From a virus: a DNA stretch of 64,000 bases. The notes beneath the pieces were generated by a model. It did not search any database, was not told the DNA's origin, and saw nothing but the letters and a program-made list of their open reading frames with translations. The position numbers and the translations under genes are program-made. The stretch covers positions 16,528-80,527 of the IMG/VR virus record IMGVR_UViG_3300037042_001212. The stretch is one strand, 5' to 3'. This document shows, piece by piece, positions 60,039 through 63,359 of the stretch; the first letter of the stretch is position 1; every line of letters begins with the position of its first letter.

Positions 60039-60071
60039 ACTCTTGACACCAAGAGTCCTGTTGCATAAACT
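60039..60071 (+). promoter_or_regulatory. Promoter with overlapping operator-like inverted repeat
   Basis: Consensus -35 TTGACA (60043-60048), 17-base spacer, -10 TAAACT (60066-60071), start expected ~60078, 26 bases before the MoxR gene. An inverted repeat ACTCTTG/CAAGAGT (60039-60045 and 60050-60056, loop ACAC) overlaps the -35. A repressor bound there would block RNA polymerase. It is the strongest promoter-like sequence in the right arm. Confidence 0.65.
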
Positions 60072-60103
60072 TGTTTGTATAACTACAACGAAGGAGTAAG
60101 ACC

Positions 60104-61228
60104 ATGAACCAAGCACTGTCCCATAAGCAAATCGTTTCACTGATCAAGGCCGTCGGCCCCGAGGTCACGGTTATCGTGCAAGGTGAGAACGGCGTGGGTA
60201 AAACGTCCGTGCAGTATGACCTGCGCCAAGACCCGGACTTCCTCGGGCACTCCGTGCTCGACCCCATCGACTGCACCCAGCTGTCGGACGGCAGCGTGTG
60301 GATGCCTGACATCGATCGCGACAACGGCATCAGCCGCGAGCTCCCCAACGAGCGCTTCGGCATCAGCACCAAGAGCCACGCGGGCATCCCCGGCTCGCGC
60401 CCTGTGGTCGTCTGCCTCGATGAGATTCTCAAGTGCCCGCAGTACATCAAGAACGTGCTGGCCCCGGTGATTTACGAGCGGCGCTTGGGTAACCTGCACC
60501 TGCCTCGCGGCAGTATCGTGTGGGGTGCGACTAACCTCGCTGTTGAGGGTCTGGGTGACCTGATCCAGCCGCACCTCCGGAGTCGCTTGCTGAAGGTGAC
60601 GTTGCGCAAGCCCACGCAGCAGGAGTGGCGCACCGAGTTCGCTGAGCCCCGGCGCTTGCATCACACCGTGACTGCGTTCACCGAGATGTTCCCGCAGTTG
60701 TTCGACTCGTTCATGGACTACGAGCCCGGTGGCAAGTTCTCCGGCAAGCCCATGTCCAAGGACAACCCGCGCATCTTCAACCCGCGTGAGCAGCAGGATG
60801 GCTTCGCCAGCCCGCGCTCGCTGCACTCCATGAGCAAGATCATGCACAACGCTGCGGCGCTCGATGACACCACGCTGTTCGCTGCCATCGCCGGTACTGC
60901 GGGTGAGCCGACTGCTGCGGACTTCATGGCTGTGGTCAAGCTCGACCGTGACATCCCCTCGTTCGAGCGTGTGATCGCTGACCCTGACGGCACGCCCATC
61001 GTTGACAACCCGACAGCGCAGCTCGTGCAGGTGCAGCAGTTTATCTACGCCACGCAGACGCGTGATGAAGCTGCCTTGCTGCTGCGCTACATCAAGCGCA
61101 TGCGGGCTGAGATGCAGACCCTGTTCGTCAACCAGATCGCCAACTCCACGCGGGTGTTGACCTTCGGCACGGTCGATGGGTTCCGCGAGATGATGAACAA
61201 CAACAGTATCTTTCTGAGGACGAAGTAA
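60104..61228 (+). CDS. MoxR-like AAA+ ATPase
   Basis: 374 residues. Walker A G27-E-N-G-V-G-K-T34, Walker B with D106-E107 (VVVCLDEI), sensor 1 GATN (SIVWGATNLA), and the arginine-finger region HLRSRLLKVTLRKP. The C-terminal ~150 residues are helical and less conserved. MoxR ATPases act with VWA-domain partners as chaperone or remodelling machines; the next gene encodes such a partner and its ATG overlaps this TAA. AAGGAG precedes the start. Confidence 0.88.
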   Translation: MNQALSHKQIVSLIKAVGPEVTVIVQGENGVGKTSVQYDLRQDPDFLGHSVLDPIDCTQLSDGSVWMPDIDRDNGISRELPNERFGISTKSHAGIPGSRPVVVCLDEILKCPQYIKNVLAPVIYERRLGNLHLPRGSIVWGATNLAVEGLGDLIQPHLRSRLLKVTLRKPTQQEWRTEFAEPRRLHHTVTAFTEMFPQLFDSFMDYEPGGKFSGKPMSKDNPRIFNPREQQDGFASPRSLHSMSKIMHNAAALDDTTLFAAIAGTAGEPTAADFMAVVKLDRDIPSFERVIADPDGTPIVDNPTAQLVQVQQFIYATQTRDEAALLLRYIKRMRAEMQTLFVNQIANSTRVLTFGTVDGFREMMNNNSIFLRTK

Positions 61229-62436
61229 TGATTACCCCAACCACATGGGGGCGGATGCCCCTTGAGCAACGCATCATCGCTTGCCACACTGACATCATGC
61301 AGCACCCCGAGTTCGCCATGCTCTCGGGTGTGGTGTGTGTCGGTAAGGTTATCGTTGATGATCGCCCGACTGCGGCTACCAACGGGCGTGATGTGTACTA
61401 TGGCCGTGCGTTCAGTGAGGCACTCAACCAGAAGCAGCTGCGCTACGTTGTGATACACGAGAACTTTCACAAAGCGCTCAAGCACTGCACCGAGTACCGT
61501 GACGTGAATGCGAAGTGGCCCGAGCTGTCCAACGTGGCGCAGGACTACGTGATCAACGGCCTCGCAGAAGAGTCCGACCGCATCAACCCCGGCTTCATTC
61601 AGCGCCCGTGGGAGGAGGACTGGTTGATGGACAGTAAGTATGACGGCATGGGGTTCCTTGAGGTTCTCCAGAAGCTGCTGCAGAATCCTCCTCCGGAGGG
61701 GGGTGGCTCCGGTGGTAGCGGCGCGGGTTCGTTCGATGAGCACATCGACGGCAGCGGGGAGTTGACCGAGGGGGAGATCACCGAGGCGCACGGTCAGATC
61801 GGTGACGCGCTGCGGCAGGGTCGCATCCTCGCCTCCAAGCTACGGGGTGAGGGTAGTGGAGGTAGCCCTCTCGACAACCTGCTGCAGCAACGCAACACTG
61901 ACTGGCGCACCCCGTTGCAGGAGTTCGTGCAGACCTTCTGCGTAGGGGATGACAACTCGCGCTTCTGCCCCCCTAACCGTCGGCTGCTGCCGCTGGGCTT
62001 CATCATGCCCTCGCACTTCAGTGAGGCGGTGGGTGAGCTGATCGTTGCCTGTGATACGTCCGGTTCGATGACGGGCGTGTATCCCACGGTCTTCGGTGAG
62101 ATCGCTCGCATCTGTGCGCTCGTGCGCCCTGACCTTGTGCGCGTGCTGTGGTGGGATGGCGAGGTCAACAGCGAGCAGGTCTTCACCCCGCTCGACTACG
62201 ACAAGATGGCGTCAGTCATGAAGCCCGAGGGTGGCGGCGGCACTACTGTGTCGTGCGTCGCTCGTTACATTGCTGCGAAGCAATACAAACCACAGGCGGT
62301 GATCTACCTGACCGACGGCTACATCGAGCACGAGTACGAGATGCCGCCCGTGCCGTGTTTGTGGGGTGTGGTTGATCACCCCAACTTCCAGCCGCGTGCT
62401 GGCAAGAAGATCAACATCAGTAGCATTTCTTTATAA
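61228..62436 (+). CDS. Metallopeptidase-motif plus VWA-domain protein, MoxR partner
   Basis: 402 residues. N-terminal metallopeptidase-like part with H77-E-N-F-H81 (YVVIHENFHKALKHC), downstream NVAQDYVINGLAEE; a Gly/Ser-rich linker (GGGSGGSGAGS) at ~155; then a C-terminal VWA-like domain with MIDAS D276-T-S-G-S280 (IVACDTSGSMTG), GGGTTVSCV and YLTDGYIE. This combination is known from the DUF2201 or VWA-like putative metallopeptidase families encoded beside MoxR genes in bacteria and phages. It overlaps the ATPase gene by 1 base. Confidence 0.85.
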   Translation: MITPTTWGRMPLEQRIIACHTDIMQHPEFAMLSGVVCVGKVIVDDRPTAATNGRDVYYGRAFSEALNQKQLRYVVIHENFHKALKHCTEYRDVNAKWPELSNVAQDYVINGLAEESDRINPGFIQRPWEEDWLMDSKYDGMGFLEVLQKLLQNPPPEGGGSGGSGAGSFDEHIDGSGELTEGEITEAHGQIGDALRQGRILASKLRGEGSGGSPLDNLLQQRNTDWRTPLQEFVQTFCVGDDNSRFCPPNRRLLPLGFIMPSHFSEAVGELIVACDTSGSMTGVYPTVFGEIARICALVRPDLVRVLWWDGEVNSEQVFTPLDYDKMASVMKPEGGGGTTVSCVARYIAAKQYKPQAVIYLTDGYIEHEYEMPPVPCLWGVVDHPNFQPRAGKKINISSISL

Positions 62437-62450
62437 CCAAGGAGATAGAG

Positions 62451-63359
62451 ATGGCACGTTTTAATATCGATACATGTTCAATGCTGGTGGAGTTCAACGC
62501 CTCCGTATGGACGGCGCGTAAGCTGGACCGCAAGGTGTCCGACGAGGTGGTGGCCAGCAAGAGCGCGGGCTCCAAGGCTGCTGCGCGGGTCAACAAGAAC
62601 CTGCTGGCTGGTCGTCCCGAGCTTGACGTGATCCAGAACCACGTCACCGCCGTACGTAACTACGTTTATGACAACACGTTGCCGTGGTCTGACAGCGGGC
62701 TGCGTCTGCTGCCGACGATCCGGTTCATAGCGTTCAACGCCCGGATGCAGGACGAGGAGAATACGTATTGGGACTTGTGTAAATCCTTTGTCACGGTGTA
62801 TCCTAGTCTCATCACTGCGCAAGCTATGGCGCTGGGGGACATGTTCAAGAGGGAGGAATACCCCGCACCGGATACCATAGCGCACAAGTTTGGGTTCAGC
62901 GTGAACTACATGCCTGTACCTACTGCGGGAGATTTCCGAGTTGATGTGGGCAACGACGCGCAGCGCGAGCTGCAGGACAAACTGACAGCGCTCGCAGATG
63001 AGCGAGTAAGCAAAGCCATGGACGATGTGCGTTTACGTATCAAGGGTCACCTTGAGCGTATGGTTGATCGCCTTGGCGTGGACGTTGTTGCTGGGGATGC
63101 CAAGCCCCGGCGCTTCCACGACAGCATGATCGAGGGGGGCTTCGAGCTGTGTGATCTGGTGAAAGGGCTCAATGTCGTGGGGGATACTGATCTGGAAGCA
63201 GCGCGTGCGTCGTTGGAGCAGTGTCTCGCTGGCGTGAGTGTGCGCACCAAGAAGAGCGGCGCTGAGATGTCGGTTGCAGACACGCTGCGTGAGGACATGC
63301 AGCAGCGTAGTGCTGTGAAGTCGCAGGTCGAAGGTATGCTCAACAAATTTAACTGGTGA
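62451..63359 (+). CDS. Third gene of the MoxR-VWA operon, unknown (302 aa)
   Basis: AAGGAG before the ATG and a 14-base gap after the VWA gene. Largely helical: WTARKLDRKVSDEVVASKSAG, SKAAARVNKNLLAGRPELDV, VTAVRNYVYDNTLPWSDSG, then RVSKAMDDVRLRIKGHLERMV. The size and layout are reminiscent of DUF3150 proteins, which occur with MoxR/VWA genes, but I am not certain. No enzymatic motif. Its constant association would suggest a substrate adaptor or target of the ATPase-VWA pair. Confidence 0.6.
   Translation: MARFNIDTCSMLVEFNASVWTARKLDRKVSDEVVASKSAGSKAAARVNKNLLAGRPELDVIQNHVTAVRNYVYDNTLPWSDSGLRLLPTIRFIAFNARMQDEENTYWDLCKSFVTVYPSLITAQAMALGDMFKREEYPAPDTIAHKFGFSVNYMPVPTAGDFRVDVGNDAQRELQDKLTALADERVSKAMDDVRLRIKGHLERMVDRLGVDVVAGDAKPRRFHDSMIEGGFELCDLVKGLNVVGDTDLEAARASLEQCLAGVSVRTKKSGAEMSVADTLREDMQQRSAVKSQVEGMLNKFNW

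What the first reader, a model, noticed from the sequence alone, without database searches (positions are those of the whole stretch)
60039..63359. Phage-encoded MoxR ATPase, metallopeptidase-VWA protein and unknown third partner under one controlled promoter
A good sigma70-type promoter with an operator-like dyad drives a three-gene unit: AAA+ ATPase (Walker A/B and arginine finger present), a protein joining HENFH to a complete MIDAS (DTSGS), and a helical protein. All catalytic or binding residues appear intact. MoxR-VWA pairs remodel or activate proteins in bacteria; a dedicated phage version with a fixed third gene is a plausible undescribed host-takeover or counter-defence machine.
Basis: partly seen in the sequence, partly recalled or inferred. 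Interest (0 to 1): 0.7.

Follow-up and report, generated by a model that had tools for sequence, protein, structure and literature searches.

The report
Mobile-element MoxR–DUF3150–VWA protein-remodelling module
An uncultured phage carries three neighbouring genes (an ATP-driven motor, a metal-site adaptor fused to a peptidase-like domain, and a helical partner) that turn out to be a phage form of a three-gene set also found on many conjugative plasmids, whose job is still unknown.

Summary
The three genes and their catalytic motifs are real and intact. MoxR-type AAA+ and DUF2201 zincin-VWA form a well-known phage pair (N4 gp24/gp25; jumbo phages). The 'unknown third partner' has no direct Pfam or PHROG hit, but it is a divergent DUF3150-type protein: profile-profile probability 95.7% over 246 collinear columns (controls 1.1% or less), and its predicted fold matches phage proteins including one named DUF3150 (E 2e-16). 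The trio co-occurs in all 13 P3-bearing loci inspected with enough flank (related phages, Burkholderiales plasmids, two bacterial assemblies) and is wholly absent from four complete related phages. An equivalent trio, CbbQ-type AAA – DUF3150 – HExxH-plus-MIDAS VWA, lies on conjugative plasmids including IncC. So this is not a dedicated phage takeover device but a mobile-element module, probably a protein remodeller. Pairs without a detectable third gene (N4-like, Rhizobium, Thermus, Roseobacter phages) show the third gene is not obligatory. Its neighbours (DNA polymerase, recombination genes) lean towards DNA metabolism, but no substrate is known. The promoter recurs in four of six close relatives; the operator-like dyad does not. 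The contig is probably chimeric at its left end, outside the window.

The parts
60039..60056 (.). Perfect 7-bp inverted repeat ACTCTTG-ACAC-CAAGAGT overlapping the -35 box (operator-like; not conserved)
   Evidence: chance 5.5% in shuffles; absent at this position in relatives
60043..60071 (+). Sigma70-type promoter TTGACA-17-TAAACT
   Evidence: similar promoter upstream of MoxR in 4 of 6 close relatives
60090..60096 (+). Ribosome-binding site GAAGGAG of the MoxR gene
   Evidence: sequence; similar in relatives
60104..61228 (+). MoxR-type AAA+ ATPase (phrog_1297), 374 aa; Walker A 27-34, Walker B 106-107, sensor 1 N144, Arg finger candidate R161, lid R238
   Evidence: hhalign to the AAA proteins of DUF3150 loci, prob 95.9%
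61228..62436 (+). DUF2201-type zincin-VWA protein (phrog_1314, PF13203 + PF09967), 402 aa; HExxHxxxxH 77-86, NxAxDxxxN 102-110, MIDAS D276/S278/S280/T339/D363
   Evidence: fold matches MDN1-MIDAS, NorD and weakly selecase
62451..63359 (+). P3: divergent DUF3150-type helical partner, 302 aa
   Evidence: no direct family hit; hhalign to DUF3150 prob 95.7%, E 1e-8; fold matches; pLDDT 82.6
59049..60029 (+). Unknown 326-aa gene immediately upstream of the MoxR promoter; homologues (24-34% identity) upstream of MoxR in close relatives; possible accessory
   Evidence: no confident family
63363..63602 (+). 79-aa unknown gene 4 nt after P3, probably cotranscribed; homologue directly after P3 in two relatives

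Best explanation
The three genes are the phage form of a mobile-element module made of a MoxR-type AAA+ ATPase, a DUF3150-type helical protein, and a VWA protein with an N-terminal HExxH zincin domain. Shown by sequence: the family identities, intact motifs, linkage and co-inheritance. Inferred from other MoxR-VWA pairs such as NorQD: the AAA+ protein forms a hexameric ring; the VWA/MIDAS domain docks on it and passes ATP-driven pulling or twisting to a client protein; P3 is the client adaptor or scaffold; the zincin domain binds metal and may clip the client. The module is probably expressed with the replication genes and most likely remodels a protein complex of phage or plasmid DNA metabolism (replication, recombination, transfer) rather than a virion part. 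That last step is the least certain.
For: Families. P3 is DUF3150-type: prob 82%, rising to 95.7% with better profiles; controls 1.1% or less; fold. Linkage: in 13 of 13 P3-bearing loci with enough flank, P3 lies with MoxR and VWA; four complete related phages lack all three, so the set comes and goes as a unit. Pairwise distances of the three proteins correlate at r = 0.92-0.97 over 14 loci. Equivalent plasmid/genome set with HExxH and MIDAS in all seven VWA partners examined; DUF3150 on 1167 plasmid records, 972 typed conjugative. DNA-metabolism context: DNA polymerase downstream on the same strand in two close relatives and in RHph_TM3_14A, PG11, LUZ7 and Presley; ssb-bet-exo beside DUF3150-VWA on an IncC plasmid; a YqaJ exonuclease beside the set in L097. 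MoxR/VWA mechanics: PMC13036017, PMC9976466.
Against: No substrate, interaction, ATPase or peptidase activity was tested. Early phage operons and plasmid backbones are generally rich in DNA-metabolism genes, so the context is weak evidence, and the N4-like examples are not independent of each other. A P3-bearing homologue (G014) has lost HExxH but kept the MIDAS, so proteolysis may be dispensable. Several phages have the pair without P3, so P3 is not essential to every such machine. The VWA proteins of the phage and DUF3150 loci match only weakly by profile (47.7%, N-terminal part). The distance correlation may largely reflect the phage/plasmid split.
Confidence: 0.55

Rival explanations
1. 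Virion-assembly chaperone: the MoxR/VWA pair helps fold or proteolytically process structural proteins, as proposed for group 2.2 jumbo phages and, per that paper, reported for the MoxR-VWA pair of Acidianus two-tailed virus.
For: Published proposal for the same pair with the metallopeptidase fusion (PMC7824862).
Against: The genes lie on the + strand, away from the minus-strand structural block 11405-54453, and next to replication genes in relatives. The same trio is on plasmids, which have no virions.
Confidence: 0.15
2. Host-takeover or counter-defence machine that disarms a host complex.
For: Sporadic presence among related phages; occurrence on both phages and plasmids, which face the same host defences.
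Against: No defence-family match. The pair is a core gene set in N4-like phages of many hosts (PMC4193335), which is unusual for host-specific counter-defence genes.
Confidence: 0.17
3. Cobaltochelatase subunits CobS/CobT that recruit host CobN to raise cobalamin, e.g. for ribonucleotide reductase.
For: CobST reading of viral AAA/VWA pairs (PMC8651126); VWA partners of DUF3150 hit Pfam CobT models.
Against: The window VWA hits DUF2201 and not CobT and carries an intact HExxH motif; a DUF3150-type third gene is not a known cobaltochelatase part; the plasmid context is recombination and transfer.
Confidence: 0.06

Closest known systems
N4-like (Schitoviridae) gp24/gp25 pair (phrog_1297 / phrog_1314)
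   Same: MoxR-type AAA+ followed by DUF2201 zincin-VWA, near the DNA polymerase in several members; VWA homologues in 537 phage records, N4-like phages prominent among them
   Different: No P3/DUF3150 gene detected in the examples checked; different phage group
Cyanophage MinM2 / Pag-Yong1 / Pra-JY27 cluster
   Same: All three families linked (inspected in MinM2); P3 homologue annotated DUF3150; terminase 46% identical
   Different: Order MoxR-P3-VWA with small genes between; window order is MoxR-VWA-P3
AAA-DUF3150-VWA backbone genes of conjugative plasmids (IncC, p152); related MoxR/VWA cluster of pCAR1, R478, Rts1, SXT and R391 per PMC2642839
   Same: AAA+, DUF3150, and VWA with HExxH and MIDAS, close together on one strand
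   Different: CbbQ-type AAA and larger CobT-like VWA (530-730 aa); P3 is below Pfam DUF3150 detection
Burkholderiales plasmid trio, often beside PRTRC and T4SS genes
   Same: Same three families; P3 about 27-32% identical
   Different: Order MoxR-P3-VWA; plasmid context
NorQD and RavA-ViaA MoxR-VWA chaperone pairs
   Same: Works-like comparison: MoxR ring plus VWA/MIDAS partner (PMC13036017, PMC9976466); NorD is among the fold matches
   Different: No zincin domain or DUF3150 partner in those descriptions; known metabolic clients
VMAP / iSTAND MoxR-vWA ternary conflict systems (PMC7159879)
   Same: MoxR + vWA + third component
   Different: Third component there is VMAP or iSTAND with effector domains; P3 is DUF3150-type, no effector domain seen

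Membership tests
MoxR-VWA chaperone pair | AAA+ ATPase with Walker A/B, sensor 1, Arg finger | tested here: met
   phrog_1297 E 1e-37; AAA_5 only below its cut-off
MoxR-VWA chaperone pair | Adjacent gene with VWA domain and complete MIDAS | tested here: met
MoxR-VWA chaperone pair | Hexamer formation, VWA docking, remodelling activity | not testable with these tools
   no multimer prediction or assay available
Phage MoxR-vWA pair with metallopeptidase fusion (jumbo group 2.2, N4 gp24/gp25) | VWA fused to N-terminal HExxH domain | tested here: met
   PF13203 above cut-off; HExxH kept in 13 of 14 homologues, lost in G014
DUF3150 (PF11348) | Match to the Pfam model above its cut-off | tested here: not met
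   no match for P3 or its relatives
DUF3150-type superfamily (wider than PF11348) | Collinear profile-profile homology and shared predicted fold | tested here: met
AAA-DUF3150-VWA mobile-element module | All three families linked on one strand | tested here: met
VMAP/iSTAND ternary conflict systems | Third component VMAP or inactive STAND with effector domains | tested here: inconclusive
   P3 matches DUF3150 instead and no Pfam model; VMAP and iSTAND profiles were not compared directly
Cobaltochelatase CobST | Second protein matches the CobT family | tested here: not met
   window VWA hits DUF2201, no CobT match
Cobaltochelatase CobST | CobN partner subunit | not tested
   CobN was not searched for; the host is unknown

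The most novel reading that the evidence does not exclude
Phages and conjugative elements share one unnamed three-part machine (AAA+ ring, DUF3150 adaptor, zincin-VWA) that remodels or cleaves a common target of mobile-DNA replication, recombination or establishment in a new host. This would be a first functional role for DUF3150.
Probability: 0.3. Interest if true: 0.7.

Novelty: new member of a known kind. Interest (0 to 1): 0.4.

Why it matters
DUF3150 sits on over a thousand plasmid records, most typed conjugative and many from clinical genera, and no paper in the held library mentions it by name. Tying the phage and plasmid sets together gives tractable systems (N4 in E. coli K-12 for the pair; an isolated cyanophage such as MinM2 for the trio) in which a widespread mobile-element machine of unknown purpose could be tested. 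The function itself remains unknown.

Tried and rejected
Direct family scans for P3 in Pfam, PHROGs, NCBIfam, PADLOC and PF11348: nothing credible. Peptide-pattern scans of viral and genome contigs with window VWA or P3 found no relatives, and P3 alignment A1 was too diverse for such scans. Candidate divergent P3 genes beside the pair in RHph_TM3_14A, CRP-7, Presley, LUZ7, SonariX and PG11, and two further MinM2 genes: no profile support. An apparent P3-VWA fusion in L050/L094 was rejected as a decayed copy with internal deletions. PDB fold search of P3: no match below 1e-3. The 'HNH endonuclease' label of phrog_1314 was rejected; the protein is DUF2201 zincin-VWA. A HAMP hit in one P3 relative was treated as spurious.

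Full report
Observation. The first is a MoxR-type AAA+ ATPase (phrog_1297, E 1e-37) with its nucleotide motifs conserved in homologues. The second joins a DUF2201_N putative metallopeptidase domain (PF13203) to a DUF2201 VWA domain (PF09967), both above the Pfam cut-off; its PHROG name 'HNH endonuclease' is a mislabel. The third has no credible direct family hit in four libraries. The promoter is supported by recurrence in relatives; the dyad is not. The transcript is unlikely to stop at P3: the next ORF starts 4 nt later and no + strand terminator was found there.

Where the window lies. It is the right-hand 64 kb of an 80.5-kb IMG/VR contig. Its terminase is 46-53% identical to those of Pelagibacter phages HTVC027P and HTVC023P, phage 023Pt_psg01, DSL-LC04 and cyanophage MinM2. 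Structural genes occupy the minus strand 11405-54453; DNA polymerase, helicase, primase and the trio are on the plus strand.

Who else has the trio. Searching 21 phage and viral records with profiles of the three proteins: MinM2 and contigs G001, G002, G004, G005, G006 and G008 have all three, linked. G011 has MoxR and P3 at its contig end; G009 has MoxR and part of VWA at its end. Four complete related phages (HTVC027P, 023Pt_psg01, DSL-LC04, HTVC023P) have none. Presley, Thermus phage phiFa and Rhizobium RHph_TM3_14A have the pair without P3. Outside phages, P3 is on 44 plasmid records, mostly Burkholderiales. The four inspected have MoxR, P3 and VWA on one strand; in three the genes are adjacent and beside T4SS genes, and in Simplicispira several genes separate MoxR from P3. 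A Bryobacterales assembly (L049) and a Pseudomonadales assembly (G014) also carry the trio. With MinM2 and six contigs that makes 13 of 13 P3-bearing loci with enough flank; G011 (cut) and the decayed second copy in G014 are not counted. Gene order differs: MoxR-VWA-P3 in the window group, MoxR-P3-VWA in MinM2, G005, the plasmids and the bacterial loci. Pairwise distances of the three proteins correlate at r = 0.92-0.97, consistent with co-inheritance, though the deep phage/plasmid split contributes.

The third partner. P3 relatives do not reach Pfam DUF3150, but MinM2's is annotated DUF3150. Profile-profile comparison gave 82% with five DUF3150 sequences and 95.7% over 246 collinear columns with six that include two conjugative plasmids. 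Reversed, shuffled and unrelated controls gave 1.1% or less. The AlphaFold2 model (pLDDT 82.6, pTM 0.47) finds eight viral models at E below 1e-3, the best (E 2e-16) named DUF3150, and nothing convincing among solved structures.

The plasmid counterpart. In the gammaproteobacterial DUF3150 loci found, a VWA protein, mostly CobT-like, and usually a CbbQ-type AAA lie nearby. Every such VWA protein examined, including those of an IncC plasmid and p152, carries HExxH and a MIDAS motif, the same architecture as the window protein. On the IncC plasmid the order is AAA - unknown - ssb - bet - exo - DUF3150 - VWA; on p152 it is AAA - DUF3150 - VWA - traF. DUF3150 occurs in 1167 plasmid records, 972 typed conjugative. 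A 2009 study noted that pCAR1 ORF100-103, with MoxR (ORF101) and VWA (ORF103), are conserved in R478, Rts1, SXT and R391 (PMC2642839). All three window proteins thus have counterparts in one mobile-element module: MoxR 95.9%, P3 95.7%, VWA more weakly at 47.7% by profile.

Mechanism. Shown: identity, motifs, linkage. Inferred: a MoxR hexamer drives a VWA adaptor, as in NorQD, where a VWA 'finger' enters the ring pore and a linker is twisted (PMC13036017; also PMC9976466). The VWA model (pLDDT 72) has the MDN1 MIDAS domain as best solved match, with NorD and selecase (a small metallopeptidase) further down at weak E-values. P3 is proposed as client adaptor or scaffold. Proteolysis is uncertain: one homologue lost HExxH while keeping the MIDAS. 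DNA polymerase lies downstream in G002 and G004 and in RHph_TM3_14A, PG11, LUZ7 and Presley. This leans towards DNA metabolism but is weak evidence, since such neighbourhoods are common.

Known and new. The pair with metallopeptidase fusion was described in jumbo phages with a virion-assembly proposal (PMC7824862), and gp24/gp25 are listed as core genes of N4-like phages, function unknown (PMC4193335, PMC2784036, PMC7650795). A cobaltochelatase reading exists for viral AAA/VWA pairs (PMC8651126). No paper in the held library names DUF3150. What this work adds is the assignment of P3 and the phage-plasmid equivalence; it does not add a function. For the probable chimera at the left of the contig, see the noticed items.

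Noticed in passing
contig G000:C1 1-13549 (left of the window) and window 63816-64000: The contig looks chimeric: its first ~13.5 kb carries a second large terminase, primase and recombination set without homologues in the relatives' loci fetched, and joins at a 185-bp stretch 95.7% identical to the contig's right end. The true phage is then probably ~67 kb, with the trio a few kb upstream of DNA polymerase. Not proven.
   Followed up: partly
59937-60026: Exact 45-bp in-frame tandem duplication (LGNFPVKVPQNYRFD twice) at the end of ORF 59049-60029; recent duplication or assembly artefact.
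   Followed up: partly
11405-19813: 2802-aa minus-strand ORF with no PHROG match.
   Followed up: no
L080, L082, L087, upstream of MoxR: Relatives share a different dyad (GGGACA...TGTCCC or GTGGGAC...GTCCCAC) in the leader upstream of MoxR.
   Followed up: partly
L050 / L094 (G014:C98): Decayed copy of the trio in the same genome that holds a fuller one at C67.
   Followed up: yes
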